Below, in pieces: positions 5,413 through 49,435 of a stretch of 64,000 nucleotides of DNA. Every line of letters starts with the position of its first letter. Position 1 is the first letter of the stretch. This DNA is from Alistipes sp. (GTDB taxonomy: Bacteria > Bacteroidota > Bacteroidia > Bacteroidales > Rikenellaceae): the NCBI GenBank assembly GCA_017631275.1, contig JAGBTQ010000004.1:1-64000 (forward strand). Reading direction: 5' to 3'. A model generated the notes under the pieces. That model was not told the DNA's origin and ran no database searches. It worked only from the letters and a program-made list of their open reading frames with translations. Made by a program: the position numbers and the translations under genes.

Positions 5413-6429
5413 ATGGCAGGTTCGAATTTTGTCGATTATGTGAAGATTTTTGCTCGCTCAGGACATGGTGGCGCTGGCTCGTGTCACTTCCGTCGTGAGA
5501 AGTTTGTAGCCTTTGGCGGTCCCGATGGTGGTGACGGCGGCAAGGGCGGTAGCATCATTCTTCAGGGCGACAGCCAATATTGGACACTCATACACCTAAA
5601 ATATAAGCGCCACCAGTTTGCTGAGGATGGCGAGAATGGCCATGGAGCACGCTCTACGGGCGCTGATGCTAAGGATATCATCATTCCTGTGCCCCTCGGA
5701 ACTGTTGCCAAGCAGGTGATTACCGACGAGGAGACTGGCGAGACATATACTGAGACTGTGGGTGAGGTTACCGAGCACGGCGAGCAGCTTGTGTTGTTGA
5801 AGGGTGGCCGTGGCGGTCTTGGTAACTGGCACTTCCGCACAGCAACAAACCAGACTCCACGCTACGCACAGCCTGGCGAGGAGGGCAAGGAGGGTGCTTT
5901 TATCCTCGAGCTTAAGGTGTTGGCAGACGTAGGCTTGGTGGGCTTCCCTAATGCGGGTAAGTCTACATTGCTTTCGGTTGTTTCTGCTGCAAAGCCAAAG
6001 ATTGCTAACTATGCCTTTACCACGCTTGAGCCTAACCTCGGCATCGTGTCGGTGCGTGACGACCACTCGTTCGTGATGGCAGATATCCCTGGTATCATCG
6101 AGGGTGCGCACGAGGGTCGTGGCCTTGGTACTCGCTTCTTGCGCCACATCGAGCGTAACTCGGTGCTTCTGTTTATGGTGCCAGCCGACAGCGACGACAT
6201 TGCTAAGGACTACGATATCTTGCTTGGCGAGCTTACACAGTATAACCCAGAACTCCTTGATAAGCAGCGCCTATTGGCTATCACTAAGTGTGATATGCTC
6301 GACGACGAGCTTATCGAGCAGATGAAGGCGCATCTTCCTGAGGGCGTTAAGTCGATATTCATTTCGTCGGTTGCGAATATGAATATTACGCAGCTTAAGG
6401 ATATGTTGTGGAATGCCCTACAAGAGTAA
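5413..6429 (+). CDS. obg: GTPase Obg (CgtA)
   Basis: This essential GTPase binds the 50S subunit and links ribosome assembly to growth state. The 338-residue product has the glycine-rich Obg fold at 1-160 (repeated GG motifs such as [11 protein letters not shown]) and a G domain with P-loop GFPNAGKS (177-184), DIPG (224-227) and TKCD (291-294). The C-terminal extension found in some species is absent. It has its own promoter after the hpf terminator. The stop codon TAA overlaps the left end of a 128-nt repeat element by two bases. Confidence 0.96.
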
Positions 6430-6554
6430 TTTCTTGTGATAAGGGCGCATCTACTGCCGCTAGCAAATTGTTGTAGCAATGAGCAGTACTTCAAGTACAG
6501 CCCATCGCTCCAAAATTTCCCGAGCGTTGTATCTGCAATCCTTCTAACAACAAA
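6428..6554 (+). repeat. 128-nt palindromic element, copy 1 (stem type A)
   Basis: The left end AATTTCTTGTGATAAGG overlaps the obg stop, and the right end is CCTTCTAACAACAAAT. The two halves form a hairpin of about 60 bases per arm. The core AGCAATGAGCAGTACTTC pairs with AAGTACAGCCCATCGCT. The same stem type occurs at 36109 and 49307. Length 127. Confidence 0.85.
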
Positions 6555-6556
6555 TC

Positions 6557-6684
6557 ATTTCTTGTGGTAATGGGTCATCTTCGGCACCAAGCTCATTGCC
6601 CCGAAAGGGGATATACGTCAAGTATACCCCCTTGCGTGTCAATTTCGACTTGGCACCAAATCTAACCCATTCTAACAAGAAATT
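6557..6684 (+). repeat. 128-nt palindromic element, copy 2 (stem type C)
   Basis: It follows copy 1 after two bases. The left end ATTTCTTGTGGTAATGGG and right end CCCATTCTAACAAGAAATT match the family. The core is GGGGATATACGTCAAGTATA followed by CCCCC. It is nearly identical to the copy at 11950. Length 128. Confidence 0.85.
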
Positions 6685-6699
6685 AGTGCGCTTTGGAAT

Positions 6700-6790
6700 G
6701 TGGTAAGAGTTCATCTTCGGCACTGCATATACCCCATTCTGATAGGAAATTGTTTCTTGCGATATAGGGTCGTGCTAATTTCAGTGCGCC
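6700..6790 (+). repeat. Degenerate remnants of the 128-nt element
   Basis: About 6700-6751 looks like an element that has lost its apical part (GTGGTAAGAGTTCATCTTCGG, then CCCCATTCTGATAGGAAATT). About 6751-6775 is a second isolated left end (TTTCTTGCGATATAGGG). Both keep the plus orientation. Confidence 0.55.
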
Positions 6791-6797
6791 AATAATG

Positions 6798-6873
6798 AGA
6801 TAAAGACAGAAAGATGGTCGTGAGCAAATGCTAAGATTTGATGCTCGACGTCGTTCTGTTCTTTTATCTTTTT
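6798..6873 (+). repeat. Long imperfect hairpin upstream of the acyltransferase operon
   Basis: AGATAAAGACAGAAAGATGG on the left is nearly complementary to the right arm TTCTGTTCTTTTATCTTTTT, with GTCGTGAGCA opposing TGCTCGACG in between. The T-rich end could act as a terminator. It differs in sequence from the 128-nt family. No promoter consensus is obvious between it and the start at 6916. Confidence 0.5.
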
Positions 6874-11285: not shown

Positions 11286-11961
11286 GAGGGTAATTCTTGT
11301 TGTTGAGGACGATGCTACGCTACGGCGCATACTTCGTGATGTGCTCATTATCAAGGGGTACGAGCTCTTGGTTGCTGAGGATGGCGAGGAGGGTTGCCGT
11401 CTATTTAGCGAGCATGACGTAGATCTTGTGATTGCCGATGTTATGATGCCGCATGTCGATGGCTTCGAGATGGTGCGAAGAATGCGTGATAAGGGCACCA
11501 ATACGCAGTTTATATTTTTGTCGGCGTTAGATAGTGCCGAAGATGTTGTCGAGGGCTTCCGTGCGGGCGGTCACGACTATCTGCGTAAGCCGTTCGATAT
11601 GAACGAACTCATGGTGCGTGTCGAGTCGCTTCTTAGCCGTCTTGAGGTGCGCACATCTACCACAGATCAGCGCATAGGACGCGCCTTGTTTAATGCCGAG
11701 ACGGGCGAGCTTCGATGTGATGATAGGGTAGAGCACCTATCGTCACGAGAGGCAGCAATACTCAAGATATTGCTCGAACATAGGGGCGAGGTGGTGACCT
11801 ATCAGCAACTGCTTCTTGATCTTTGGGGTGATGATAGCTATTATAATCTTCGCTCGATGAATGTCTTTGTGTCGCACCTCAGAGCTAAACTTCAGCGCGT
11901 AGGCTCGGTGCACATAGCATCGGAGAGAGGGGTGGGGTATAAATTAGGTAATTTCTCGTGA
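11278..11961 (+). CDS. OmpR-family response regulator
   Basis: The 227-residue product has a receiver domain (1-120) with acidic pocket DD (11-12), phosphorylation site D54 in IADVMMP, and K104 in YLRKPFD. A winged-helix DNA-binding domain follows (about 130-226; RSMNVFVSHLRAKL). It is the partner of the kinase with which it overlaps. Odd point: the last codons and the stop (AAT TTC TCG TGA) lie inside the left end of a 128-nt repeat, so the repeat supplies the C-terminal NFS and the stop codon. Confidence 0.94.
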   Translation: MAKRVILVVEDDATLRRILRDVLIIKGYELLVAEDGEEGCRLFSEHDVDLVIADVMMPHVDGFEMVRRMRDKGTNTQFIFLSALDSAEDVVEGFRAGGHDYLRKPFDMNELMVRVESLLSRLEVRTSTTDQRIGRALFNAETGELRCDDRVEHLSSREAAILKILLEHRGEVVTYQQLLLDLWGDDSYYNLRSMNVFVSHLRAKLQRVGSVHIASERGVGYKLGNFS

Positions 11962-12078
11962 TAATGGGTCATCTTCGGCACCAAGCTCATTGCCCCGAAA
12001 GGGGATATACGCTAAGTATACCCCCTTGCGTGTCAATTTCGACTTGATACCAAATCTAACCCATTCTAACAAGAAATT
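11950..12078 (+). repeat. 128-nt palindromic element, copy 3 (stem type C)
   Basis: It starts within the response regulator gene (AATTTCTCGTGATAATGGG) and ends CCCATTCTAACAAGAAATT. It is almost identical to copy 2 at 6557, with core GATATACGCTAAGTATACCC. Length 129. Confidence 0.88.
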
Positions 12079-12205
12079 ATTTCTCATGATAAGGGCGCAT
12101 CTGCGACCTTTCAATCAAAGCCACCAATGGGACGTACGTCAAGTACTACCCATCGGTGGCTTTTTCATATCAAGGCCCCATCTGCAACCCTTCTGACAAG
12201 AAATT
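12079..12205 (+). repeat. 128-nt palindromic element, copy 4 (stem type B-like)
   Basis: It is directly adjacent to copy 3 (ATTTCTCATGATAAGGG to CCCTTCTGACAAGAAATT). The apical stem GCCACCAATGGG/CCCATCGGTGGC is that of the copies at 22874 and 28475, but the lower stem begins GCGCATCTGC as in type A. It therefore looks like a hybrid of two types. Length 127. Confidence 0.85.
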
Positions 12206-21390: not shown

Positions 21391-22875
21391 ATGGCAGTTG
21401 AACTTAAAGATTTGACCAAGAGCGACGAGAACTACTCGCAGTGGTACAACGACTTGGTTATCAAAGCGGGCTTGGCTGAGAACTCAGCAGTCCGTGGCTG
21501 TATGGTGATTAAGCCTTATGGCTATGCTATTTGGGAGAAGATGCGTGATGTGCTTGATCGCATGTTCAAGGAGACAGGCCACGAGAATGCCTACTTCCCA
21601 CTATTTATCCCTAAGTCATTCTTCTCTCGCGAGGCAAGCCACGTTGAGGGCTTCGCTAAGGAGTGCGCTGTAGTTACTCACTACCGCCTAAAGAACGACG
21701 AGGAGGGTAAGGGTGTTGTTGTTGACCCTGCTGCACGCCTCGAGGAGGAGCTTATCGTGCGCCCAACATCAGAGACAATCATCTGGAACACCTACAAGAA
21801 CTGGATTACATCATACCGCGACCTTCCAATCTTGTGCAACCAGTGGGCAAACGTGGTTCGCTGGGAGATGCGTACCCGCCTCTTCTTGCGTACTGCCGAG
21901 TTCTTGTGGCAGGAGGGACACACCGCTCACGCCACAGCCCAGGAGGCTATCGAGGAGACCGAGCGCATGATCAACGTTTACCGCACCTTCGCCGAGGAGT
22001 GGATGGGCGTGCCTGTTATCGTAGGTCATAAGTCGCCAAACGAGCGCTTTGCAGGTGCTGTCGATACCCTCACTATCGAGGCGTTGATGCAGGACGGTAA
22101 GGCTTTGCAGAGCGGTACTTCGCACTTCCTTGGTCAGAACTTCGCTAAGGCATTCGACGTGCAGTACACCTCTAAGGAGGGCAAGCAGGAGTATGTGTGG
22201 GCAACATCATGGGGCGTATCAACACGTCTTATGGGTGCTCTTATTATGGCTCACTCTGATAATAATGGTCTTGTGTTGCCTCCAAAGTTGGCGCCTATTC
22301 AGGTTGTCATGGTGCCTATCTACAAGGGTGAGGAGCAGCGCCAGCAGGTTGTTGAGCGCTTCGAGCAGATGGCTAAGGAGCTTCGTGCTAAGGGCGTATC
22401 TGTTAAGGTTGATGCTCGCGACAATGTTCGCTCAGGCTTTAAGTTCGCTGAGTACGAACTTAAGGGTGTGCCTGTGCGCCTTGCACTCGGCCCACGCGAC
22501 CTTGAGAATGGCACTATCGAGCTTGCTCGCCGTGATACCCTCACTAAGGAGGTTGTTTCGCAGGAGGGCCTCACTGACCGCCTCGTAGCGCTTCTCGACG
22601 AGATCCAGCAGAACATCTTCCAGAAGGCTCTCGACTACCGTAACTCTATGATTACTAAGGTCGATACATGGGAGGAGTTCCAGGAGGTGCTAAACACTAA
22701 GGGTGGTTTCATCTCAGCACACTGGGACGGCACACCTGAGACCGAGCAGGCAATCAAAGAGGCTACCAAGGCAACTATCCGTTGTATCCCTATGGACGTT
22801 GTTGAGGAGGAGGGTACATGTGTATTCTCGGGTAAGCCGTCGAAGTTCCGCGTATTGTTCGCCAAGAGCTATTAA
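21391..22875 (+). CDS. proS: Prolyl-tRNA synthetase
   Basis: The class II enzyme charges tRNA-Pro. At 494 residues it is of the shorter eukaryote/archaeon-like type without the bacterial editing insertion. It shows [10 protein letters not shown], the motif 2 region [23 protein letters not shown], the motif 3 region [19 protein letters not shown], and an anticodon-binding domain from about 290 ([10 protein letters not shown]). It ends with the C-terminal domain of this type (CIPMDV...[15 protein letters not shown]). The stop overlaps a 128-nt repeat. Confidence 0.96.
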
Positions 22876-23001
22876 TTTGTTGTGATAAGGGGTCGATTGC
22901 GGCCCCTAGAAAAAATGCCACCAATGGGACGTACATCTAGTACTGCCCATCGGTGGCATTTTTGCCGAGTGTGGCACTCGGCACCCTTCTGATAACAAAT
23001 T
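22874..23001 (+). repeat. 128-nt palindromic element, copy 5 (stem type B)
   Basis: It begins in the proS stop codon (AATTTGTTGTGATAAGGGG) and ends CCCTTCTGATAACAAATT. The apical stem GCCACCAATGGG/CCCATCGGTGGC encloses GTACATCTAGTAC. It is nearly identical to copy 6 at 28475. Length 128. Confidence 0.88.
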
Positions 23002-23240: not shown

Positions 23241-23280
23241 TACTTTTCACCTTTCCCCTTTCACTTTTAACTTTTTTTTG

Positions 23281-27795: not shown

Positions 27796-28476
27796 ATGGA
27801 GACAATCGGAATGCGTGTTCGTCTTATGCGCAAGCAGCTTAACATGACTCAAGATCAACTATCTCAGCGACTTGGCATCGGTAAGGCTGCCCTCTCGATG
27901 ATCGAGACGGGCAAGGCAGGCTTGTCGCAACGCAATAAAAATATCTTGGTTCAGGATTTGAACATTAATCCCGATTGGTTGGAGTTGGGCGAGGGTAAGA
28001 TGTTTAATGCCGAGCCCGATATGACCTCATATCTTCACCGCACCGATAAGTCGCTACCTTTGCAGAGCGTGCCTCTCTACTCAATCGAGGGCACTGCGGG
28101 ACTTGTGCCTATCTTCGATGCTAAGAGCGAGATTACCCCATCTAACTTTATACATATCCCCAACCTTCCTAAGTGCGACGGTGCGATATATGTTCAGGGC
28201 GACTCGATGTATCCGCTCCTTAAGAGTGGCGACATTGTGCTCTACAAGCAGCTTAGCGACGTGCGCGATGTTTTTTGGGGCGATATGTATCTTCTCTCCA
28301 TTGAGATCGACGGCGAGGAGTATATCACTGTCAAGTATGTTCAGAAGTCCGAGCACGACGGCTACATCAAGCTCGTAAGCCAGAACCAGCACCACGCCGA
28401 CAAAGAGGTTGAGATCAGCCGCATACGTGCCATAGCTCTTATAAAGGCCTCAGTTCGTATGCACACCATCGGGTAA
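27796..28476 (+). CDS. cI/LexA-like repressor (HTH plus S24 peptidase)
   Basis: The 226-residue product has an N-terminal XRE helix-turn-helix (about 5-62; MTQDQLSQRLGIGKAALSMIE) and a C-terminal S24 domain with the Ser of GDSMYP (about residue 137) and the Lys in EYITVKYV (about 180). This is the architecture of phage repressors that self-cleave when RecA is activated. It is transcribed divergently from the small protein and terL, with overlapping promoters, so it probably represses them and responds to DNA damage. Its stop overlaps a 128-nt repeat. Confidence 0.92.
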   Translation: METIGMRVRLMRKQLNMTQDQLSQRLGIGKAALSMIETGKAGLSQRNKNILVQDLNINPDWLELGEGKMFNAEPDMTSYLHRTDKSLPLQSVPLYSIEGTAGLVPIFDAKSEITPSNFIHIPNLPKCDGAIYVQGDSMYPLLKSGDIVLYKQLSDVRDVFWGDMYLLSIEIDGEEYITVKYVQKSEHDGYIKLVSQNQHHADKEVEISRIRAIALIKASVRMHTIG

Positions 28477-28603
28477 TTTCTTGTGATAAGGGGTCGATTG
28501 CGGCCCCTAGAAAAAATGCCACCAATGGGACGTACAACTAGTACTACCCATCGGTGGCATTTTTGCCGAGTGTAGCACTCGGCACCCTTCTGACAAGAAA
28601 TTA
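28475..28603 (+). repeat. 128-nt palindromic element, copy 6 (stem type B)
   Basis: It starts within the repressor stop codon (AATTTCTTGTGATAAGGGG) and ends CCCTTCTGACAAGAAATT. The ends are almost perfect inverted repeats. The apical loop is GTACAACTAGTAC. Length 129. Confidence 0.9.
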
Positions 28604-34906: not shown

Positions 34907-36109
34907 ATGGTAATTCTTGTTCTCAACTGCGGTAGCTCGTCTATCAAGTACCAGGTACTCGATGTTCAGGAGCAGTCGCAGACTCTACTTGCCAAGGGCT
35001 TGGTAGAGCGTATCGGTTTGGCTGAAGGCGATCTTACTCACAAGCCTCAGGGTAAGGATAAGTTTGAGCTTCACTGCCCAATTCCTGACCACACAACAGG
35101 TATCCGTCTTGTTCTCGACGCACTTACCGACGAGAAGCACGGCGTAATCAAGTCGCTCGACGAGCTTAAGGCTGCTGGTCACCGTGTAGCACATGGTGGT
35201 GAGTTCTTCCACGATAGCTGCCTCGTTGACGAGGAGGTTAAGGCTAAGATCGAGTCGTTGTACACCATCGCTCCTTTGCACAACCCTGCAAACCTTGAGG
35301 GTATCCTCTCAATGGAGAAGGTGTTGCCAGGTATCAAGCAGGTGGCTGTATTCGACACATCATTCCACCACACTATCCCTGCAATCAACTACTTGTACGC
35401 TATCCCTTACGAGTACTACGAGAAGTATCGCGTACGTAAGTATGGCTTCCACGGCACAAGCCACAAGTTTGTTGCACGCGTAGGTGCTGAGATGTTCGGC
35501 CTCGACTTTGAGAACTCAAAAATCGTTACTTGCCACATCGGTAACGGTGCATCAGTAACAGCTATTAAGAACGGTAAGTCGTTCGACACATCTATGGGCT
35601 TCTCTCCACTCGATGGTCTTGTGATGGGTACACGCGCTGGTTCTATGGATGTTAGCGCTGCAACATACATCGCACAGAAGGAGGGTATGTCTTACGCTGA
35701 GCTCGACAACATGCTCAACAAGAAGTCGGGTGTTCAGGGTCTTACAGGCATCTCAAGCGATATGCGCGATATCGACGCTGCTTACGACGAGGGTAATGAG
35801 CGCGCTATCATCGCTCGCGACATGTATGGCAATCGCATCAAGAAGTTCGTGGGTGAGTATGCTGCTGAGATGGGTGGTGTTGACCTTGTAATCTTCACTG
35901 GTGGTGTTGGTGAGAACTCTCCAGAGGTTCGTGAGTACGTTTTGCGTAACATGGAGTTCATGGGTCTTGAGTTCGACGAGGTTCGCAACCGCGGTAAGCG
36001 TGGCACCGACTATGAGATTTCTAAGGAGGGCTCACGTGTTAAGGCTGCCGTAATCTGCACTGACGAGGAGTTGGTAATCGCTAAGGATACATTCCGTTTG
36101 GTAAAATAA
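34907..36109 (+). CDS. ackA: Acetate kinase
   Basis: It converts acetyl phosphate and ADP to acetate and ATP in fermentation. The 400 residues are normal length. The N-terminal phosphate-binding motif VLNCGSSSIKYQ, the central CHIGNGASVTAI and the GISSDMRDI and TGGVGENS segments are diagnostic. It is followed by ptb and buk; pta, its usual partner, is not in the window. The TAA stop adjoins a 128-nt repeat. Confidence 0.96.
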   Translation: MVILVLNCGSSSIKYQVLDVQEQSQTLLAKGLVERIGLAEGDLTHKPQGKDKFELHCPIPDHTTGIRLVLDALTDEKHGVIKSLDELKAAGHRVAHGGEFFHDSCLVDEEVKAKIESLYTIAPLHNPANLEGILSMEKVLPGIKQVAVFDTSFHHTIPAINYLYAIPYEYYEKYRVRKYGFHGTSHKFVARVGAEMFGLDFENSKIVTCHIGNGASVTAIKNGKSFDTSMGFSPLDGLVMGTRAGSMDVSAATYIAQKEGMSYAELDNMLNKKSGVQGLTGISSDMRDIDAAYDEGNERAIIARDMYGNRIKKFVGEYAAEMGGVDLVIFTGGVGENSPEVREYVLRNMEFMGLEFDEVRNRGKRGTDYEISKEGSRVKAAVICTDEELVIAKDTFRLVK

Positions 36110-36236
36110 ATTTGTTGTGATAATAGCGCATCTGCTGCCGCTAACAAAATGCTGAAGCAATGGGCGGTACCTCAAAGTACAGCCCATCGCTCCAAAGTTT
36201 GCCGAGCGTTGCATCTGCACTATTCTAACAACAAAT
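36109..36236 (+). repeat. 128-nt palindromic element, copy 7 (stem type A)
   Basis: It begins on the last base of the ackA stop (AATTTGTTGTGATAATAGCG) and ends ATTCTAACAACAAAT. The core AGCAATGGGCGGTACCTC pairs with AAAGTACAGCCCATCGCT. Length 128. The spacer from here to the ptb start at 36356 has no gene and no clear promoter. Confidence 0.86.
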
Positions 36237-36355
36237 CAAGTGGACTAAAGAGGGCGAACTTGAAAATCTGCTCTTTTAATCCGGCTCTCCAATAAAGGGA
36301 GGGCAAAACTTAAAACGACAAATATTAACTAACAACATAAAAAACTTAAACTACT

Positions 36356-37258: not shown

Positions 37259-37286
37259 TTTTTAACTAAGTTAATAGTCTAACAAT

Positions 37287-38354: not shown

Positions 38355-38481
38355 AATTTACCGTGATAAGGCATCATCTGCGGCGTCTTACTTGCTTGCA
38401 AATTCCTCATTTACCTTAAGTAAACTGCGGATTTGCAATCTGCGATAAGCCACCACATCTAATGCCTTCTAACGATAAATT
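38355..38481 (+). repeat. 128-nt palindromic element, copy 8 (stem type F)
   Basis: AATTTACCGTGATAAGG begins on the base after the buk stop; the right end is CCTTCTAACGATAAATT. The stem GCAAATTCCTCATTTAC opposes GTAAACTGCGGATTTGC, a sequence unlike the other types. The outer ends have changed in a matching way (TTACCG/CGATAA). Length 127. Confidence 0.82.
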
Positions 38482-38554
38482 GAGTGCGCTGATTGAGGTG
38501 TGTGATTACACGCTGATTTAGGCGTTATACAAATTTTCGCTAAATTTTTAGGCG

Positions 38555-38971: not shown

Positions 38972-38973
38972 TC

Positions 38974-40422: not shown

Positions 40423-40425
40423 ATT

Positions 40426-41097
40426 ATGCGCCTTAGGTTACTCCTTAGTGCCCTTACTAAATATCTCGTGGGCGTGGTTATGGTGGGTGCTCTTGTGATG
40501 CTCCCAGCGGGCTCTGTGGAGTATTGGCAGGGGTGGCTCTTTATGGCAGTGCTCTTTATCCCTATCTTTATTGCTGGTGTGGTTATGCTCGTGCGCTCGC
40601 CCGAGCTTCTCGAGAAGCGCCTTAGTGCCAAGGAGAGGGCTTCGGAGCAGAGCCTTGTTGTTAAGCTTAGTGGCTTACTCTTTGTCGCTGTCTTTGTGAT
40701 TGCGGGTTTTAACTGGCGCTATGGCTGGTGCATGTTGCCCGAGTGGGTAGTGTGGAGTGCTGTGGTGCTCTTCTTGGCGGGCTATATGCTCTATGCTGAG
40801 GTGTTGCGCGAGAACGTATATCTATCCCGCACTATCGAGGTGCAAGCGGGGCAAAAGGTCATCGATACGGGTCTTTATGCCGTCGTGCGCCACCCGATGT
40901 ACACAGCCACCATACTCCTCTTCTTGGCTATGCCCCTTTTGCTATCCTCGCCACTGTCGTTTGCACTAATGCTACTCTATATCCCTCTTGTCATTAAGCG
41001 CATCAAGCATGAGGAGGCGCTTCTTGAACGAGAATTAGAGGGCTATAGCGACTATATGCGTCGTGTGAAGTATAGGCTTATTCCCTATATCTACTAA
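40426..41097 (+). CDS. Isoprenylcysteine carboxyl methyltransferase-like membrane protein
   Basis: The 223-residue protein has several membrane segments and the C-terminal ICMT/PEMT signature: DTGLYAVVRHPMYTA (about 147-161) and a later EEALLERELEGYSDYMRRVKYRLIP, the cofactor-binding region. Bacterial members are presumed methyltransferases of unknown substrate. It lies three bases after the flippase gene, and its 3' end overlaps the convergent thiL gene by four bases. Confidence 0.87.
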   Translation: MRLRLLLSALTKYLVGVVMVGALVMLPAGSVEYWQGWLFMAVLFIPIFIAGVVMLVRSPELLEKRLSAKERASEQSLVVKLSGLLFVAVFVIAGFNWRYGWCMLPEWVVWSAVVLFLAGYMLYAEVLRENVYLSRTIEVQAGQKVIDTGLYAVVRHPMYTATILLFLAMPLLLSSPLSFALMLLYIPLVIKRIKHEEALLERELEGYSDYMRRVKYRLIPYIY

Positions 41098-42029: not shown

Positions 42030-42033
42030 ACTA

Positions 42034-42041
42034 CAAAGGTA
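42034..42041 (-). promoter_or_regulatory. -7 promoter element directly before thiL
   Basis: The minus strand reads TACCTTTG, then GTAGTATGAAA, with four bases between the element and the ATG, as before the histidine kinase gene. Confidence 0.6.
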
Positions 42042-42061
42042 GCGATTTTTTTAAAAGAAAT

Positions 42062-42098
42062 TAGGGAGGTCAAGGAATAATTCTCCCTAACCTCCCTA
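42062..42098 (-). terminator. Terminator-like hairpin after the lipoprotein pair
   Basis: TAGGGAGGT (42062-42070) and ACCTCCCTA (42090-42098) pair perfectly. On the minus strand a T-rich tract follows. It lies 22 bases after the stop of the lipoprotein gene at 42120. Confidence 0.6.
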
Positions 42099-42119
42099 TG
42101 AGTGTTGTAATCGTTGCCG

Positions 42120-43508
42120 TTAGTTGATAGCAAAGCGGTATGCAGCACGCACGCTATATGCCTTGTCGCGTGTTGACTCAAGGCAAACAACGCTGTCTTC
42201 CATAAAGGCTACTGCTACAGCACTTGTCTTGTCAAGACCTGTTGATGACCAGTAGTAGGTCTCAACGAATGGCTCGCCACCATTCTCCGAGAGGAGCTTA
42301 TTGTAGTGTGCAACGCTTGGACTGTCGAACTTGAGAGTGCCGCCAGATACTGCGTCCCACATCCACTGCATCTCCTGCTGTGATGGTAGGAACCAGCCCT
42401 CGCCATGCTCCACACACCACTTGAATGCTGGGTAGTCGTCAATGTTGCGGTTGTCACGGCTTGGGTGGAAGATGTCCTCAGTAATCCATGCGCCCCATGC
42501 AGAGTTAGCATAGCTAAGATCTACCTGCTCGTTAGACCAAGCCAAATCCTCCTCGTCCATAGACATTACGTAGCAGAACATCGTGCCTGAAGCAGTGTGC
42601 TCCTTAATAGCAAAGATTACACCCTTCACGCCATTCTCATTATAGAGCATACCAGGCTCATACTTGCCCTCCCAATTAGGGTCGTAGGCATCTACATTGG
42701 TGCTCTCGCCAGTCACCTTATCCTGGTAGCGAGCACGGAATGAGTGTGTGCCAACCTCTGATGTCTTAAACTTATTGCTGCTGAGTACCTCGCTAGTATT
42801 AACGTTGTAGATCTCAGCCTCTGAGGTTACATCCTCCTCGCCAAAGGTCACGGTGAAGATAGCCTCCTCAGTGCCGTCTGCCTTGATGCGGTTAGGGCTT
42901 ACCGAAAGGCGAAGCTCCTTAACCTCAGGTGCTGGAACGGCATTTGCAACCACCGCTACCTCGTTCGATAGCCACTTGCCCTCATACATCGCCTGGAACT
43001 TAAACTCGCCAGTAACGTCCGATGTGAAGGTGTTGCCCTCGACCTTAATGTTGTAGTTGAGGTTGGTAATCTCGTAGTTGTCGGTCACAACCTCGCCATC
43101 TACCTTCACGGTAAATGTCACAGTATCTGTGCTGTCGGCAATAATCTCGCTCTTGTCAGCCTCAAGCGTGATGATCTTCTCAACCTCCTTGGCTGTAACC
43201 TCAACCACGTCAGATGACTCCTGTCCGTAGATAGCCTTAAACTGATACTTGCCAGGCTCTGTTGTGGTGAATGTGTTGCCCGAGAGGATAGAGTTATCCT
43301 TAAGTGAGATAATCTGAATGTCGGCATTCTCCACGCCATCAACCTTAGCTGTGAATGTTGCCTTGTCTGCGCCATTAGCCAATATCTCGCTCTTGTCAAC
43401 GCTGAGTGTTGGCTTCTGAGCCTCTGGCTGTGGCTCTACTGTAGGCTCGCACGCCGTAAAACCGAGTGCGAGGGCTACAATAGCAAATATGCTTAAAAAC
43501 TTTTTCAT
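42120..43508 (-). CDS. Surface lipoprotein with Ig-like repeats and a DUF1566-like C-terminal domain
   Basis: The 462-residue product has a lipobox (GFTAC, Cys 20) followed by EPTVE, suggesting surface export. Three Ig-like repeats follow (about 35-110, 112-190 and 196-270), each with the pattern LSVDKSEILANGADKATF, EVTD or EDVTS, and a G-F-A-Y ending. The C-terminal domain (about 285-462) has WFLPSQQEMQWMW, YYWSST and VRAAYRF, the signature of DUF1566/Lcl, a C-type-lectin-like fold. A binding role at the cell surface is likely; the ligand is unknown. It lies 17 bases after the next upstream lipoprotein gene. Confidence 0.85.
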   Translation of the reverse strand: MKKFLSIFAIVALALGFTACEPTVEPQPEAQKPTLSVDKSEILANGADKATFTAKVDGVENADIQIISLKDNSILSGNTFTTTEPGKYQFKAIYGQESSDVVEVTAKEVEKIITLEADKSEIIADSTDTVTFTVKVDGEVVTDNYEITNLNYNIKVEGNTFTSDVTGEFKFQAMYEGKWLSNEVAVVANAVPAPEVKELRLSVSPNRIKADGTEEAIFTVTFGEEDVTSEAEIYNVNTSEVLSSNKFKTSEVGTHSFRARYQDKVTGESTNVDAYDPNWEGKYEPGMLYNENGVKGVIFAIKEHTASGTMFCYVMSMDEEDLAWSNEQVDLSYANSAWGAWITEDIFHPSRDNRNIDDYPAFKWCVEHGEGWFLPSQQEMQWMWDAVSGGTLKFDSPSVAHYNKLLSENGGEPFVETYYWSSTGLDKTSAVAVAFMEDSVVCLESTRDKAYSVRAAYRFAIN

Positions 43509-43525
43509 TCTGAGTAAGTGTTAAA

Positions 43526-45061
43526 TTACTGAGCCTGATCAAACATCTCAGGAGTTACGCGTACAGCATACTGTGTAGCTGTGTTCTCCTCGTTGATAAC
43601 CTCAAAGAAGAATACGTAATCATCTTTATCTACGCCAGGGAACGAAACGGTAGTGCCCTCTGCTGTCTTTGCAGCTGCCAATGTATCTGCAGATACAGAA
43701 GTGCGGAACATGAAGAATGCCTGAATCTGTGACCAGTCGTTTGGATCCCAATACTTAGCAAAGTCGTAGTTAGCCCAAAGCTGAGCACCAATCTTAAGGT
43801 CTGTAGCATACTGGTTGGTCTTAACACCAAAGTTTACGTTGTACTTGAAGCCGTCCTTAGTAATTACTGCGTCAGAAACCTCGAGTGAAGCAAGGATGTC
43901 TGTTGAAGGAGATGCAGTTCTGAATGGTACTGCAACATAGTTGTAGTCGTAAACCGAAGTTGGGTCAACCGTTGTAGGATCCACATAGAACAATACTACT
44001 ACATAGTCAGTGTCGTTCTTAAGAGTCTGGTATGCTGAGATTGTTGCTGCACCCTTGCGACCAAGCTTATCCTCCTGGATAATGTCGCCGAAGCTGAAGC
44101 CCTGCTCCACAGCGATGTTGTTAAGACCAAAGTAGCTACGCATAACGATGTTTGCACGAGCCTCATTTGCCAATGTCTCATCATATGACTTCTTAGTCCA
44201 GATGTAGTATGTCCACTGCTGATCAGCCTTTGCAGGTGTTACATCGAGGTTGAAGTTTGTGTGGTTTGTCACGAGGTTGCTCGTTGTGAACAATGTACTT
44301 GAATCAATAGGCTCGCCCTTAGGTGTTGAAAACGCATAGCGGAAGAGCTTCATCTCATCAACCTTGTTGTGCATAGCCTCCCAGTTCTCGAAGTTGAATG
44401 CTACTACAAGGTAGTCAGTCTCGGCAGCAAGTCTGCAATCGAGGGTTGTTCTTCCCTGAGTAATCCAGTCGCCGCTGCTAGGGTTCTCGATGATGTACTC
44501 GAAAATCTGATAGTCGTTGTTGTAGATGTTAAAAGCATCAAGCTCCATCTTTGTGATAACACGGAAGTAGTAGCGGTTAGCTGCTGAGTTAGGAGTAGCT
44601 GTAACCGATGCAGATGTTGCGGTGATGTCCTTAACCTCAAACTCTACATCGAAGAGCTCTGGGGCAATAGGCGCCTCAGCCTTAGATGTGGTGATGTCAA
44701 GGCGGCTAAGCTTATCTGTCGATGTGATGTAGAAGGCGATAAGAGCGTAGTCGGTCTCAGGCAAAAGGTTGTTTGCGCCGATAAGCTGAGTGCCCTTACG
44801 TGTCTTGAATGACTCGCTATTTACAGCCTCGTCAATAATCTCTGCATCGCTCTTATCTGCGATGTCGGCAGCTGCAACAATCGCAGCGTAGTAGTTAGCA
44901 GCGGCATCTGCTGGCGTAATCTTCACCTGGATAGATGAGGCAGTCACGTTTGGCTCGCCAAAGCTAAAGCCGGTGTTGTCGTTGCCGCCCTGCTGTGATG
45001 GCTCGCAGCTAACGCCAACCAGCGCCAAGAGCGCAAGCATCATCGAAAAAAGTTTTCTCAT
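43526..45061 (-). CDS. Surface lipoprotein with Fn3-like repeats
   Basis: From the ATG at 45061 the product has 511 residues, with a signal peptide and lipobox GVSC followed by EPSQQ. An in-frame ATG 45 bases upstream would put 15 residues in front of the signal peptide, so 45061 is preferred. The mature part looks like repeated Fn3- or Ig-like units beginning at about residues 34, 140, 260 and 390 (each with an NYYAAIVAA, NRYYFRVI, QWTYYIWTK or DLKIGAQLW strand and an ETDYALIAF- or DTDYVVVLF-type strand). The same unit style occurs in the lipoprotein at 49732. Function unknown. Confidence 0.82.
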   Translation of the reverse strand: MRKLFSMMLALLALVGVSCEPSQQGGNDNTGFSFGEPNVTASSIQVKITPADAAANYYAAIVAAADIADKSDAEIIDEAVNSESFKTRKGTQLIGANNLLPETDYALIAFYITSTDKLSRLDITTSKAEAPIAPELFDVEFEVKDITATSASVTATPNSAANRYYFRVITKMELDAFNIYNNDYQIFEYIIENPSSGDWITQGRTTLDCRLAAETDYLVVAFNFENWEAMHNKVDEMKLFRYAFSTPKGEPIDSSTLFTTSNLVTNHTNFNLDVTPAKADQQWTYYIWTKKSYDETLANEARANIVMRSYFGLNNIAVEQGFSFGDIIQEDKLGRKGAATISAYQTLKNDTDYVVVLFYVDPTTVDPTSVYDYNYVAVPFRTASPSTDILASLEVSDAVITKDGFKYNVNFGVKTNQYATDLKIGAQLWANYDFAKYWDPNDWSQIQAFFMFRTSVSADTLAAAKTAEGTTVSFPGVDKDDYVFFFEVINEENTATQYAVRVTPEMFDQAQ

Positions 45062-45251
45062 AGTTACCAATGGTTTTTTAGTTAGTATTAATATTTTTAT
45101 TCTCAAAATTCACTTGCTTTATCTAGCATTACTTGCGTAGCAAGTCGTCACAAAGATAGTGATATTATCTGTAATTCACCAAATTCGCATAAAAATTATT
45201 TGTTGGCGTGTTAAAAAAATGCGAGGAGTTGCTAGTTTCATGAAAAAATAT

Positions 45252-45259
45252 TAATTTTG
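45252..45259 (+). promoter_or_regulatory. -7 promoter element of argR
   Basis: TAATTTTG implies a start site near 45266, which excludes an ATG at 45257 as the real start of argR. Confidence 0.6.
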
Positions 45260-45322
45260 TACGTTGTTTATGCAATAATTATGAGTGCTCATGCGCTTAA
45301 TATACAAATTAGTGGAGAACCT

Positions 45323-45787
45323 ATGAATCAGAAAACACAACGCCTATCAGTAATTCGCAAAATCATTCGCTCAGAGTTTATATCATCTCAGGAGGAGCTT
45401 ATCGCTCGCCTCGAGGAGCATGGCGTAAAGATCACGCAGTCAACACTTTCGCGTGACCTTAAGTTTATGCATGTGGCTAAGGTTCCACACAAGGAGAAGG
45501 GCTACATCTATGTTCTTCCAAACAACACCCGCAACGACCATTCAATCTCGACCAACGTGTCGGACAACATCATAGACATTGCATTTTCTGGCAATATGTG
45601 CGTGATAACCACCAAGCCTGGTTATGCAAGCGCTATCTCGGTGCCTATCGACAGCAAGGGTATCTCTGAGGTGCTCGGCACCATCGCTGGCGACAACACC
45701 ATTTTGATGATTCTTCGTGAGGGCTTCGATATGAATTCGTTGATGGATCAGCTTTATATGCTCTTTCCCTCAATCCGCAACCTTTAA
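45323..45787 (+). CDS. argR: Arginine repressor ArgR
   Basis: It controls arginine synthesis and catabolism genes, binding ARG boxes as an arginine-dependent hexamer. From the ATG at 45323 it has 154 residues, the usual length, with GGAG nine bases upstream. Upstream in-frame ATGs at 45257 and 45281 are less likely, because 45257 lies inside the promoter element. The winged helix has SQEELIARLEEHGVKITQ and the recognition motif STLSRDLK; the C-terminal domain has the arginine-binding GTIAGDNTILMI. Its stop overlaps a 128-nt repeat. Confidence 0.92.
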   Translation: MNQKTQRLSVIRKIIRSEFISSQEELIARLEEHGVKITQSTLSRDLKFMHVAKVPHKEKGYIYVLPNNTRNDHSISTNVSDNIIDIAFSGNMCVITTKPGYASAISVPIDSKGISEVLGTIAGDNTILMILREGFDMNSLMDQLYMLFPSIRNL

Positions 45788-45914
45788 TTTCTTGTGATAA
45801 GGGGTCATCTTCGACCTATCCCAAAAGTTGAGCACCCGAGGCTGTACTAAGTGTACTATCCTCGGGTGCTCACTTTTGCGATAAGCCAAATCTAACCCCT
45901 TCTGACAAGAAATT
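45786..45914 (+). repeat. 128-nt palindromic element, copy 9 (stem type D)
   Basis: It begins within the argR stop codon (AATTTCTTGTGATAAGGGG) and ends CCCCTTCTGACAAGAAATT. The apical stem GAGCACCCGAGG pairs perfectly with CCTCGGGTGCTC and encloses CTGTACTAAGTGTACTAT. Length 129. Confidence 0.9.
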
Positions 45915-46040
45915 AGTGCGCTGATTGAGGTGGTAGATTAGGGAGTTTAGTGATAGTCTTTCCCTAAGTTCCTTAAATTCCTTATTCTCCCTATCTTTCC
46001 TATCTTCCCTATTCTCCCTATCGTTTCCATCTCAGCGCCA
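45915..46040 (+). repeat. Repeat tail following copy 9
   Basis: AGTGCGCTGATTGAGGTGG is followed by a short purine block (GATTAGGGAG) and pyrimidine-rich TTCCCTATTCTCCCTATC-type units, reaching to the end of the convergent TonB-like gene. Confidence 0.65.
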
Positions 46041-46045
46041 TTAAC

Positions 46046-46882
46046 CTACTGAGCCACAAACGTATAGGTGATTGTGCCCTTGTGGGGTGCGGGGGCTGAG
46101 CCGTCGATATTAAATCGAGTGTTGTAGTTGCGGGCGGCCTGGATAGCGATAGCGTTGAGGCTCGAATTTGTCGATGACGACACGCGAGCATTTGTAACTG
46201 CGCCATTGCGGTCCAACCAGACGTCGAGCACCACCACGCCACCACCACGTGCCGTATAGGCAGGGATATACAAATTGTTATGGTTGCGCACAGGGTCGGT
46301 GAAGCAGTAGCTCACGGTACATGCACCCTGATACTTGCCCTTATTCTCATTCTCGCTCTTCGAGTCGCCCGTATCTTCGCCACCGCCCTTGCCACTCTTG
46401 CCTGAGCCCTTCACCGAGCTGGTGCCCTCCTCAAGGTCGCTGCGGCTGCCGTCCATGCCATCGTTGATATCCTCCACAACCTGCTCGTTCTCGGTCTCCT
46501 GCTCGGCACTGCCCGACGAGTCCTCACTCTCTGATGCTTCGTTAGATGCCAGGTTGCGCACATTCTGCATGCGCTGGTATAGCTCCTCGGCACTAACCTG
46601 GGGCTTTGTCTCGGGCACCTTCTCCTCCTTAAACTCCTCGGGGATAATCTCGATAAGATACTCAAGGTCAATGCGCTCGACATGGTAGCGTGCTGTGGCA
46701 AGCACCGTGCCCGCAAGCACAAATACGGCAAATACCACAAGAAGTCCAATGCGGTGGTTGAACAACCACTCGCCCATGCTCTCCTTGCGCGTGTCGCCAA
46801 GGTTGATGCGTGCATGGTGTCGAGGTGCACTCTTGCGTTGGTCGCCTCTATTTATATCTCTTTTATTTGAGTTGTTCTGCAT
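46046..46882 (-). CDS. TonB-family protein
   Basis: The 278-residue product has a short basic cytoplasmic N terminus, one membrane segment (about 46-63), a long charged low-complexity periplasmic linker (about 75-185; rich in E, S and G rather than the usual proline), and a C-terminal TonB-like domain (about 190-277; VVVLDVWLDRNGAVTNARV, then GTITYTFVAQ). It probably transmits proton-motive energy to an outer-membrane receptor, although ExbB/ExbD are not adjacent. It is divergent from lpxC-fabZ. Confidence 0.85.
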   Translation of the reverse strand: MQNNSNKRDINRGDQRKSAPRHHARINLGDTRKESMGEWLFNHRIGLLVVFAVFVLAGTVLATARYHVERIDLEYLIEIIPEEFKEEKVPETKPQVSAEELYQRMQNVRNLASNEASESEDSSGSAEQETENEQVVEDINDGMDGSRSDLEEGTSSVKGSGKSGKGGGEDTGDSKSENENKGKYQGACTVSYCFTDPVRNHNNLYIPAYTARGGGVVVLDVWLDRNGAVTNARVSSSTNSSLNAIAIQAARNYNTRFNIDGSAPAPHKGTITYTFVAQ

Positions 46883-46902
46883 AGTAATGGTAATATTCTG
46901 AG

Positions 46903-46910
46903 CAAAAATA
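46903..46910 (-). promoter_or_regulatory. Possible -7 element of the TonB-like gene
   Basis: The minus strand reads TATTTTTG (TAnnTTTG), 20 bases upstream of the start. Confidence 0.4.
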
Positions 46911-46933
46911 GTAATTTTTTTTGAGAAAATTTA

Positions 46934-46941
46934 TATCTTTG
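46934..46941 (+). promoter_or_regulatory. -7 promoter element of lpxC-fabZ
   Basis: TATCTTTG followed by CAACGATATA, 26 bases before the ATG. Confidence 0.65.
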
Positions 46942-46967
46942 CAACGATATACCAAAAATTTATTAGT

Positions 46968-48353
46968 ATGGCTATTAAACAACGTACACTTGCCCAGCCA
47001 ATTTCATTCGAGGGTAAGGGCTTGCACACAGGTTTGCAGGTTAAGATGACGGTTAATCCCGCAGACGATAATACAGGTATAATTTTCCGACGTGTTGACC
47101 TTGAGGGTTGCCCCGAGGTTCCTGCCTTGTACGACTATGTGACCGACACATCACGTGGCACAACAATCGAGAAGGGTGAGGCTAAGGTGAGCACCATCGA
47201 GCATATCATGTCGGCATTATGGACTTTAGAGGTAGATAACGCAATAGTAGATATCAACGCTCCCGAAACACCTATCATGGACGGCTCGGCACGTGAGTAT
47301 GCCCAGCGCATCATCGAGGTGGGCACAGTGGAGCAGACCGCTGAGCGCAAATATTATGAGGTTACAGAGAAGCAGGTATATACACTCCCAGAGAAGGGCG
47401 TAGCTATCGTTCTCTATCCCGACGACGAGTTCTCAGTATCGGTACATGTTGACTACAACTCAAAGGTTGTGGGCAACCAGTATGCTGTCTATAACCCAGC
47501 AGACAACTATGCCGAGAAGATATCTATGTGTCGCACATTTGTCTTCTTGCACGAGCTCGAGCCACTTATGAAGATGAACCTCATCAAGGGTGGCGACCTC
47601 GACAATGCTATCGTGGTTGTTGAGAACCCTGTATCTGACGAGCAGCTTGAGCACCTCAAAAAAATATTTGGCAAGGAGGATATCCACATTACAGGTGGTT
47701 ACCTGAACAACCAGCAGCTACGTGCCAACAATGAGTTTGCACGCCACAAGCTCCTCGACCTCCTCGGCGACTTCGCACTTCTTGGCATGCGCATCAAGGG
47801 TCGTGTATGGGCTACCCGTCCAGGCCACTTCGCTAACACCGAGTTTATGAAGGATCTCGGCCGCCAGATACGCCGTAGCGGCGACCGTCCTATGTTCAAA
47901 TATAGCGCTAAGCAGCAGCCTCTGTTGGACATCAACCAGATTAAGAGCCTTCTTCCACACCGTCCTCCATTCTTGCTTGTTGACCGTGTCTTCCACATCG
48001 GCAAGAACGACATCGGCGGTATCAAGCAGGTATCTATGAATGAGCCATTCTTCGTGGGTCACTTCCCCGAGGAGCCCGTTATGCCTGGTGTGCTCATCAT
48101 CGAGGCATTGGCGCAGTGCTGTGGCATCCTTGTGTTAAATGGCGTTGAGGATCCCGAGAGCTACTCTACATACTTCCTCAAGGCAGACGGCGTGAAGTGG
48201 AAGCGCAAGGTCGTTCCTGGCGACACCCTACAGTTGGAGTGCCACATTGGCGACTTCCGTCGTGGCATCTGCACCGCCGAGTGTAAGGCATTTGTGGGTG
48301 GTCAGCTTGCTTGCGAGGCAGTGCTCACAGCGCAGATTGTGAAGAATCGCTAA
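46968..48353 (+). CDS. lpxC/fabZ: Bifunctional LpxC deacetylase and FabZ dehydratase
   Basis: The 461-residue fusion is typical of Bacteroidota. The LpxC part (1 to about 300) removes acetate from UDP-3-O-acyl-GlcNAc, the committed step of lipid A synthesis; its zinc ligands are visible in TIEHIMSAL and in the HKLLDLLGDFAL motif. The FabZ part (about 315-461) dehydrates 3-hydroxyacyl-ACP; it has LLPHRPPFLLVDRV and the catalytic GHFPEEPVMPGVLIIEA. The fusion joins two enzymes that draw on the same hydroxyacyl-ACP pool. lpxA follows after 39 bases. Confidence 0.97.
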   Translation: MAIKQRTLAQPISFEGKGLHTGLQVKMTVNPADDNTGIIFRRVDLEGCPEVPALYDYVTDTSRGTTIEKGEAKVSTIEHIMSALWTLEVDNAIVDINAPETPIMDGSAREYAQRIIEVGTVEQTAERKYYEVTEKQVYTLPEKGVAIVLYPDDEFSVSVHVDYNSKVVGNQYAVYNPADNYAEKISMCRTFVFLHELEPLMKMNLIKGGDLDNAIVVVENPVSDEQLEHLKKIFGKEDIHITGGYLNNQQLRANNEFARHKLLDLLGDFALLGMRIKGRVWATRPGHFANTEFMKDLGRQIRRSGDRPMFKYSAKQQPLLDINQIKSLLPHRPPFLLVDRVFHIGKNDIGGIKQVSMNEPFFVGHFPEEPVMPGVLIIEALAQCCGILVLNGVEDPESYSTYFLKADGVKWKRKVVPGDTLQLECHIGDFRRGICTAECKAFVGGQLACEAVLTAQIVKNR

Positions 48354-48392
48354 TGCTTTAATTATCTACGACACAAACAATTAATACAATAT

Positions 48393-49178
48393 ATGATTAG
48401 TAACTTAGCCTACGTTCACCCCGATGCAAAGATCGGTAAGAATGTTACAATCGAGCCTTTTGCCTATGTCGAGGGCGACGTAGTCATTGGCGACGATTGC
48501 TGGATCGGCCCCCACGCCATTATCTACAATGGTGCACGACTCGGAAAGGGTAATAAGGTGCACCCCGGAGCATGCATCGCATGTCTTCCTCAAGACCTTA
48601 AGTTTGCTGGCGAAGAGACAACAGCCGTTATTGGCGACTATAACGATATTCGTGAGTGTGTGACCATTGCACGTGGTACCGCCTCACGTGGCACCACTGT
48701 TGTTGGCGACCACAACCTGCTTATGGCATATGTTCACGTGGCGCACGACGATGTTGTGGGCTCGCACTGCGTAATTGCCAACCGTGTGTCGCTTGCTGGC
48801 GAGGTAGAGGTCGGCGATTGGGTGGTTATCGGTGGCCATACAGCTATCCACCAGTGGATACATGTTGGCGACCACGCAATGATTCAGGGTGGTGCACTCC
48901 TCACGCAGGACGTTCCTCCATTTATCATCGTAACAAATGGCGAGGCACGCTATGCTGGTATCAATAAAGTTGGTCTTTCACGTCGTGGCTTCACTGCCGA
49001 GCAGATCGAGTCTATCCACAACACTTGCCGTGTATTGTTCCAGAGCGACCTCAGCTACCTTTCAGGTTGCGAGAAGGCTGAGAACGAGATTCCAGAGACT
49101 CCTGAGCGCAACAAGCTCATCGAGTTTATACGTAATTCTAAGCGAGGTGTCATCAAGCAATACCAATCTCGCCGATAA
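48393..49178 (+). CDS. lpxA: UDP-GlcNAc acyltransferase
   Basis: It performs the first step of lipid A synthesis, adding a 3-hydroxyacyl chain to UDP-GlcNAc. The 261-residue product is a left-handed beta helix of hexapeptide repeats (IGKNVTIEPFAYVEGDVVIGDDCWIGPHA) with the catalytic His in AYVHVAHDD, followed by a C-terminal helical part (LSRRGFTAEQIESIHN). It is in an operon with lpxC-fabZ. The stop overlaps a 128-nt repeat, and a second copy follows. Confidence 0.96.
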   Translation: MISNLAYVHPDAKIGKNVTIEPFAYVEGDVVIGDDCWIGPHAIIYNGARLGKGNKVHPGACIACLPQDLKFAGEETTAVIGDYNDIRECVTIARGTASRGTTVVGDHNLLMAYVHVAHDDVVGSHCVIANRVSLAGEVEVGDWVVIGGHTAIHQWIHVGDHAMIQGGALLTQDVPPFIIVTNGEARYAGINKVGLSRRGFTAEQIESIHNTCRVLFQSDLSYLSGCEKAENEIPETPERNKLIEFIRNSKRGVIKQYQSRR

Positions 49179-49306
49179 TTTGTTGTGATAAGCCGCAATC
49201 TGCGGCACATCGTAAAAAGTTAATCACCACGGGCTGTACGTTTTGTACTATCCCGTGGTGATTACTTTTTCGATGCACCACATCTCACGGCTTCTAACAA
49301 CAAATT
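49177..49306 (+). repeat. 128-nt palindromic element, copy 10 (stem type E)
   Basis: It begins within the lpxA stop codon (AATTTGTTGTGATAAG) and ends CTTCTAACAACAAATT. The apical stem AATCACCACGGG pairs perfectly with CCCGTGGTGATT and encloses CTGTACGTTTTGTACTAT. Length 130. Confidence 0.9.
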
Positions 49307-49435
49307 CTTTCTCGTGATAAGGGCGCATCTGCCGCCGCTAGCAAAAAAAGTCCCGACAATGAGCAGTACTTCTTGTACAGCCCATCGCCTCGAAATTCGC
49401 CGAGCGTTGTATCTGATAACTTCTAACAAGAAATT
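49307..49435 (+). repeat. 128-nt palindromic element, copy 11 (stem type A)
   Basis: It is directly adjacent to copy 10, starting CTTTCTCGTGATAAGGG and ending CTTCTAACAAGAAATT. The core is AATGAGCAGTACTTCTTGTA followed by CAGCCCATCG. Length about 129. Confidence 0.86.

What the first reader, a model, noticed from the sequence alone, without database searches (positions are those of the whole stretch)
6428..49435. Family of eleven 127-130 nt palindromic elements at gene 3' ends
Near-complete copies lie at 6428, 6557, 11950, 12079, 22874, 28475, 36109, 38355, 45786, 49177 and 49307, with remnants at 1896 and 6700-6790. All share the left end AATTTsTTGTGATAAGG and right end CCTTCTRACAAsAAATT. 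Each can fold into one hairpin along its whole length. They follow obg, a response regulator, proS, a repressor, ackA, buk, argR and lpxA, with no functional theme. The ends are not the attC consensus and no transposase is encoded. I know no named family with these ends.
Basis: partly seen in the sequence, partly recalled or inferred. Interest (0 to 1): 0.88.

Follow-up and report, generated by a model that had tools for sequence, protein, structure and literature searches.

The report
Stop-codon hairpins folded on antisense strand
Gut bacteria related to Alistipes carry many copies of a roughly 130-letter DNA hairpin that nearly always sits directly on a gene's stop signal, and evolution keeps the fold of the strand opposite the gene; no known repeat family that was checked here behaves like this.

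Summary
Eleven near-complete copies sit where stated and belong to a genome-wide family: at least 138 distinct copies in the window's own genome, G000. (1) Position: 102 of 104 assessable first copies in G000, and 74 of 80 in other genomes of the genus, start within 12 nt of the upstream gene's stop codon and point with the gene; the same test on the other strand at the right end gives 6 of 74 and 0 of 28. (2) Strand: the constrained fold is that of the antisense strand. Mismatches inside stems are A.C on the sense strand (G.U on the antisense) 67:9 and 75:8, against 14:32 in ordinary 3' hairpins of the same genomes. Antisense folding is more stable in 219 of 246. (3) Turnover: at one stop codon, related species carry nothing, a copy with another core, or another hairpin family. 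An antisense model also finds the architecture, with other outer stems, in seven further Bacteroidales families. No Rfam, plasmid or phage match; no IS200-type transposase (37 genomes) or integron integrase above cut-off (23); attC boxes 0 of 246. Best reading: a new family of small mobile hairpins working as a folded antisense strand; how it finds stop codons is unknown.

The parts
6428..6556 (+). copy 1, first of a tandem pair; obgE stop TAA at 6427-6429 = T + AA of the element; the folded strand is '-'
   Evidence: antisense MFE -50.9, sense -32.2
6557..6684 (+). copy 2, tandem follower
6685..6800 (+). internally deleted remnants of further copies
   Evidence: sequence by eye
11950..12078 (+). 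copy 3, first of a tandem pair; response-regulator ORF runs to a TGA inside the left end (stop at +12)
12079..12205 (+). copy 4, tandem follower
22874..23001 (+). copy 5; proS stop TAA at 22873-22875 shared with the left end
28475..28602 (+). copy 6; stop TAA at 28474-28476; G139, a close relative, has a copy with a different core at the same stop
36109..36237 (+). copy 7, between ackA and a phosphate butyryltransferase-like gene; 17 of 26 relatives read have only 26-59 nt there
38355..38481 (+). copy 8, directly after the butyrate kinase stop TAA (38352-38354); G139 has another hairpin family there
45786..45914 (+). copy 9; argR stop TAA at 45785-45787
   Evidence: antisense MFE -80.8, sense -62.8
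49177..49306 (+). copy 10, first of a tandem pair; lpxA stop TAA at 49176-49178
49307..49435 (+). copy 11, tandem follower, decayed
1896..1940 (+). left-end remnant 4 nt after the TAG of the ORF 1455-1892; its right limit is approximate

Best explanation
SHOWN: a large dispersed family of hairpins, about 130 nt, anchored on stop codons in the direction of the gene, in which the pairing of the antisense strand is conserved: outer stem of 10 bp, 3x3 internal loop, second stem of about 9 bp, GA/GA loop, long variable stem, small apical GTAC stem and a loop of about 5 nt. INFERRED: these are small non-autonomous mobile modules. They arrive again and again at the bases directly after (or inside) the stop codon, pushing older copies downstream where they decay, and the working form is the folded antisense single strand. 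I think it most likely that this strand is recombined as a folded single strand, in the logic of integron attC sites but with unrelated ends, by a trans-acting enzyme not identified here. Insertion at the stop is tolerated because the left end supplies stop codons in two of three frames (TAA at once, TGA 12 nt in; the third frame runs on about 46 nt) and the protein end mostly stays as it was. The step that makes it find stop codons is unknown.
For: Stop anchoring: 102 of 104 assessable first copies in G000 (4 of 108 set aside) and 74 of 80 in other genomes of the genus (9 of 89 set aside); the same test on the other strand at the right end of the array gives 6 of 74 and 0 of 28; first hairpins of 9 bp or more in element-free gene ends fall in that range in 16 of 74. 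Antisense fold: A.C:G.T 67:9 and 75:8, strand-randomised control 53:49, ordinary 3' hairpins 14:32; substitutions T>C 30 and G>A 29 against C>T 11 and A>G 10, so not a one-way deamination bias (direction taken from the commonest Watson-Crick pair in the same context, hence rough); antisense MFE mean -66.6 against -53.9, more stable in 219 of 246 although these copies were found with a sense-strand model; 92.3% of cells paired, 37 of 50 pairs with compensatory changes, covariation 0.44 against 0.17 shuffled. The bias holds where the next gene lies in the same direction (34:1) as well as convergent (23:6), so it is not simply the 3' UTR of a convergent neighbour. Mobility: empty, differently filled and filled sites at the ackA, buk and argR stops, with the protein end mostly unchanged; stop-proximal copy more stable in 24 of 30 adjacent pairs, Wilcoxon p 8e-4. 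Same architecture with other outer stems elsewhere in the order.
Against: No enzyme found. Y1 transposase (PF01797) in 0 of 37 genus genomes; integron integrase above cut-off in 0 of 23 genus genomes; reverse transcriptase in 9 of 23 genus genomes, with none in G000 and the element-rich G011, G020 and G021 (these four are 78-88% complete). Tyrosine recombinases below the integron cut-off are present nearly everywhere (36 of 37) and were not tested further. No target-site duplication beyond chance, n=78. The share of G.U (238 of 2091 cells; in three pairs 26-28 of 42 sequences) suits RNA at least as well as single-stranded DNA. Change of family at one site could be gene conversion between copies rather than insertion. 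The antisense structure was drawn from the alignment on which it was counted, with G.U allowed, although the A.C/G.T test treats both mismatches alike. A related hairpin outside the order sits at a tRNA end, not at a stop codon.
Confidence: 0.42

Rival explanations
1. Antisense RNA element: the antisense strand is transcribed and its hairpin acts as RNA at the 3' boundary of the gene (stopping or processing antisense transcripts, or as a structured RNA), and copies spread by gene conversion.
For: G.U, not A.C, is tolerated on that strand and three pairs are mostly G.U, as in RNAs; a sharp position at the gene border; conserved internal loops. A -7-like box TAnnTTTG is enriched on the antisense strand, 38 against 9.9 in shuffles and 11 in sense, mostly in the element's own ends.
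Against: Pairs of -33 and -7 boxes are not enriched: TTTG form 0 in antisense and 3 in sense, TTG form 2 and 5, over 106 arrays (promoter consensus recalled). The asymmetry is as strong where no convergent gene would supply antisense RNA. It does not explain empty and exchanged sites by itself.
Confidence: 0.27
2. Sense-strand transcription terminator or mRNA 3'-end stabiliser copied from gene to gene.
For: Sense folding is also strong (mean -53.9). A T-run of 4 or more lies in the right arm of the core in 170 of 246 and an A-run in the left arm in 153 of 246 (fixed windows, no control). Arrays have a convergent neighbour in 65 of 106 against 16 of 49 genes of the window (4 of 8 with and 12 of 41 without the element). 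Ordinary hairpins also often start near the stop (16 of 74).
Against: The wobble bias is on the wrong strand; ordinary 3' hairpins in the same genomes show the expected sense bias. The terminator scan of 36000-50000 found none in the five copies there. The ackA copy lies in a gap that is 26-59 nt in 17 of 26 relatives, probably an operon.
Confidence: 0.14
3. Ordinary MITE moved by a DDE transposase, seen at stop codons only because other insertions are lost.
For: Inverted ends, high copy number, small size, patchy distribution in the genus.
Against: No target-site duplication; 102 of 104 and 74 of 80 first copies point with the gene at its stop, few elsewhere in the 3' space; internal pairs co-vary throughout, not only the ends. 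A larger element with these ends was not searched for.
Confidence: 0.1
4. Divergent integron attC sites (or a REP family moved by a Y1 transposase).
For: Works alike: hairpin of the antisense (bottom) strand at the stop codon, tandem modules, variable terminal part.
Against: R boxes RYYYAAC/GTTRRRY in 0 of 246 copies; no integron integrase above cut-off in 23 genus genomes; no Y1 transposase in 37; the named host genes are core chromosomal genes, not cassettes.
Confidence: 0.04

Closest known systems
Integron attC sites (bottom-strand hairpins; abstract and passages of PMC2727003 seen; other features recalled)
   Same: Structure more than sequence is conserved; folded strand is antisense to the gene; site follows the gene closely (recalled); unpaired spacer between two outer stems; variable apical part; tandem modules.
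   Different: No RYYYAAC/GTTRRRY boxes (0 of 246); no integron integrase above cut-off in 23 genus genomes; host genes named here are core genes; inner pairs co-vary along the whole hairpin.
ERIC/IRU/RU-1, 127 bp (passages of the review PMC2229807; length from the abstract of PMC2759123 in the listing)
   Same: Size, dispersed between genes, co-transcribed with neighbours, orientation matters for its effect on transcripts.
   Different: ERIC has TIRs of 7 bp, TA at the ends and target duplications (table); here no duplication, nearly every first copy on a stop codon in gene direction, antisense fold. Different host group.
REP/BIME with Y1 (RAYT) transposases
   Same: Extragenic palindromes in many copies.
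   Different: REPs are 20-40 bp (abstract of PMC3733652 in the listing); no Y1 transposase in 37 genus genomes.
Palindromic candidate RNAs of Bacteroidetes from human microbiomes, such as HMP2_4205, 132 bp (passages of PMC8040213)
   Same: Palindromic, similar length, mostly Bacteroidetes, reported on both strands.
   Different: Sequences could not be compared (supplements not available here); 230 of 250 were predicted terminators; the passages seen describe no stop-codon anchoring or strand bias ('stop codon' does not occur in the text).
BrickBuilt MITE of Porphyromonas gingivalis (passages of PMC4596501)
   Same: Non-coding dispersed repeat with inverted ends in Bacteroidales.
   Different: Contains 23-nt tandem repeats, ends of another sequence, target duplications in three of four intact copies.

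Membership tests
Integron attC | R'' RYYYAAC at the 5' end and R' GTTRRRY at the 3' end of the top strand | tested here: not met
   0 of 246 copies in either end, nor in the reverse arrangement; consensus recalled
Integron attC | bottom strand is the folded, selected strand | tested here: met
   (67:9, 75:8), control. In attC the strand choice is ascribed to extrahelical bases (abstract), which were not tested here
Integron attC | integron integrase in the genome or relatives | tested here: not met
   TIGR02249 over cut-off in 0 of 23 genus genomes and 1 of 37 in all
REP / RAYT | Y1 (IS200-type) transposase in the genome | tested here: not met
   PF01797 in 0 of 37 genus genomes, in 19 of 24 genomes of other families in the same search
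MITE (incl. ERIC, Correia, RUP) | terminal inverted repeats | tested here: met
MITE (incl. ERIC, Correia, RUP) | target-site duplication | tested here: not met
   direct repeats at 78 single copies match shuffled pairing
MITE (incl. ERIC, Correia, RUP) | related autonomous transposon with the same ends | not tested
   no search for paired ends at transposon distance was made
Known Rfam family | score above gathering cut-off | tested here: not met
   window at gathering: only 5S rRNA and tRNA; part of the window and seven other loci at relaxed thresholds: none over gathering except tRNA
Intrinsic terminator | hairpin of the sense RNA followed by a T-run | tested here: inconclusive
   T-run of 4 or more in 170 of 246 right arms, no control; none of five copies passes the scan; the wobble bias is antisense

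The most novel reading that the evidence does not exclude
A new class of mobile genetic element of Bacteroidales, with a conserved RNA-like architecture but lineage-specific outer stems, that inserts immediately after stop codons by a mechanism coupled to the gene's 3' boundary or to translation termination, and whose active form is the folded antisense strand.
Probability: 0.3. Interest if true: 0.93.

Novelty: new variant of a known kind. Interest (0 to 1): 0.78.

Why it matters
Stop codons carry no meaning for ordinary DNA transposition, yet these elements begin on them in 176 of 184 assessable cases. Either a mobile element reads gene ends, which would be a new way of choosing a target, or the 3' boundary of genes in these bacteria has a structured function on the antisense strand that no annotation shows. 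The two readings make different predictions for strand-specific RNA-seq and for resequencing. The exchange between close relatives also reshapes the 3' regions of core genes in gut bacteria.

Tried and rejected
Rejected or unsupported: attC, Y1/REP, reverse-transcriptase mobility as a general requirement (0 matches in G000, G011, G020, G021, all incomplete genomes; the element-bearing G003 and G006 do have one), deamination bias as cause of the A.C excess, 3' UTR of the convergent gene, a full antisense promoter, target duplication, plasmid or phage origin (no match; one exact pattern and one copy as query). A de novo scan for stop-anchored inverted repeats with loose settings was not discriminating (relatives 54 of 276 at the stop, 37-41 of 276 at four control offsets); it is not used as evidence. 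Family 2 hairpins (GGAGCCAACTAATTTGG) show no clear strand preference (1 of 3); family 3 prefers antisense in 5 of 7 and family 1b in 6 of 6, several of them the same site in related species. The 31 of 31 antisense preference in other families is biased because an antisense model found them. From the 187 rows, 108 copies were kept: second strands of the same places were dropped, and L186 as a likely duplicate of L104 (same coordinates and score). In one search matches ending more than 25 residues short of the protein end or near a locus end were left out. Paper searches; no paper on this family was found in them, which covers only the open-licence library.
Full report
What is there. The eleven copies are real. 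The left-end pattern occurs 21 times in the window with up to three mismatches, against 0.18 expected. A model from the eleven copies, R1, gives 150 rows in the own genome at E<=0.001; after removing the second strand of the same palindromes, 138 distinct copies remain. Only 150 of 683 candidates were scored, so this is a lower bound. They form 108 arrays: 80 single, 26 double, 2 triple. The best matches to the window's acetate kinase in named genomes are MAGs called Alistipes sp. from sheep, water deer and yak gut; Alistipes belongs to Rikenellaceae, Bacteroidales. In the genus, 24 of 36 relatives have at least one match at E<=0.001, several only a single weak one, and none of 24 genomes of other families of the order with R1; in 268 genomes of the family 116 match at E<=1e-4, in 3 of 22 genera.

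Stop-codon anchoring. For each first copy I took the longest same-strand open frame covering the point 60 nt upstream. In G000, 104 of 108 could be assessed; in 102 the frame's stop ends between 11 nt before and 12 nt after the element's first base, in 2 at +46 and +47. In 66 the stop is TAA made of a T and the element's first AA; in 8 the frame runs into the TGA at +12. In other genomes of the genus, 108 copies were extracted, 89 were first copies, 80 assessable, and 74 lie within 12 nt. Two yardsticks: the same test on the other strand at the right end of the array gives 6 of 74 and 0 of 28 assessable cases, so the anchoring is one-sided and the copies point with the gene; and the first perfect hairpin of 9 bp or more behind genes without the element starts in the G000 range in 16 of 74.

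The antisense strand is the folded one. I aligned each copy with its own reverse complement, scoring all mismatches alike, and counted single mismatches flanked by two Watson-Crick pairs on each side, once per sequence context. Sense-strand A.C outnumbers G.T 67:9 in G000 and 75:8 in 108 copies from other genomes; reversing half of the latter at random gives 53:49. A.C leads at 21 positions and G.T at 5 in each set. Ordinary hairpins behind genes in the same genomes show the opposite, 14:32, as expected for sense RNA. Both kinds of change that give a wobble on the antisense strand are equally common, T>C 30 and G>A 29, against 11 and 10, so this is no one-way deamination bias. By RNA folding the antisense strand is more stable in 219 of 246 copies and the sense in 24, means -66.6 and -53.9 kcal/mol, though all of these were found with a sense model. 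On 42 diverse antisense sequences the structure has 92.3% paired cells, 37 of 50 pairs with changes on both sides, and covariation 0.44 against 0.17 in shuffles and at most 0.11 in slid versions; the structure was drawn from the same alignment. The bias does not depend on the neighbour: 34:1 where the next gene points the same way, 23:6 where it converges.

Turnover at one site. G139 is 94% identical to G000 over the phosphotransbutyrylase-butyrate kinase genes. At the stop at 28476 both genomes have a copy, but with different cores; at lpxA and argR the cores differ too. Behind butyrate kinase G000 has this family and G139 another hairpin family, TAAAGTTATCTG. The ackA junction was read in 27 of 30 loci, G000 and 26 relatives: 17 have a gap of 26-59 nt without a hairpin element, G139 has this family, 6 have hairpins of the GGAGCCAACTAATTTGG kind or like it, and 2 have other sequence (my sorting by eye). 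In four of the six, read, AckA ends in VGAN. Apart from that, the protein ends of the eight genes compared agree with and without the element, except one or two residues in some relatives and ArgR in two. In 30 adjacent tandem pairs of G000 the copy nearer the stop has the more stable antisense fold in 24, as expected if new copies arrive at the stop. In some copies a 9-12 nt piece of an older left end precedes the new one.

Wider distribution. The antisense model R2 finds matches in 9 of 343 other genomes sampled from the order, in seven families. Copies read there have outer stems of other sequence, still paired, with the same loops. Of 31 copies, 22 have an upstream frame of 80 codons or more; 17 of these lie within 15 nt of its stop, and two of the five misses are tandem followers (my count). 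A third model, R3, gives 2 of 394 further genomes sampled from the phylum. One of these, L320, begins at the 3' end of a tRNA-Ser gene, not at a stop. Nothing was found in viral contigs (exact pattern), plasmids or phages (one copy as query).

What moves it. Y1 transposase 0 of 37 genus genomes; integron integrase above cut-off 0 of 23, other tyrosine recombinases present and untested; reverse transcriptase 9 of 23, none in G000 and three element-rich genomes, all incomplete. attC boxes 0 of 246; no target duplication. Antisense -7-like boxes are enriched in the element ends but without a -33 partner. Thus the enzyme is unknown, and the choice between a folded single DNA strand and an antisense RNA stays open. 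The G.U share leans to RNA; the empty and exchanged sites lean to a mobile module. I give the mobile module 0.42 and the antisense RNA 0.27.

Known families. Rfam gave nothing above cut-off apart from 5S rRNA and tRNA. ERIC, NEMIS, RUP, REP and attC share single features but fail on tested ones (membership table). Nine answered paper searches gave no description of this family; candidate palindromic RNAs in PMC8040213 could include relatives and could not be compared.

Noticed in passing
window 23002-23270, 28603-28830, 45915-46049, 49436-49727: Behind the elements lie other repeats: a tail like GTGCGCTGATTGAGGTGG (motif CTRATYKADGT in 53 of 106 arrays) followed by hairpins built of 9-nt GGGAAGATA-like units or of ATGGG-AGCGCTTCGCTTG units. 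The 3' intergenic space looks like layers of successive hairpin families.
   Followed up: partly
L207, L219, L221, L222 (ackA 3' ends): A second hairpin family whose left end encodes the last residues of the host protein: AckA ends in VGAN instead of TK/VK where it is present.
   Followed up: partly
L203 15578-15856: In G139 the copy behind ackA is duplicated with its flank; the second copy lacks the left outer stem.
   Followed up: no
L320 350-471 and L321: Outside the order, a related hairpin abuts the 3' end of a tRNA-Ser gene; L320 has weak hits to the sRNA families sX4 and sX9, far below cut-off.
   Followed up: partly
L203 2805-3911 and 6859-8181: G139 carries two ORFs (368 and 440 codons) in the gaps behind the genes matching 23320-25755 and 27796-28476; G000 has no matching stretch there.
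   Followed up: no
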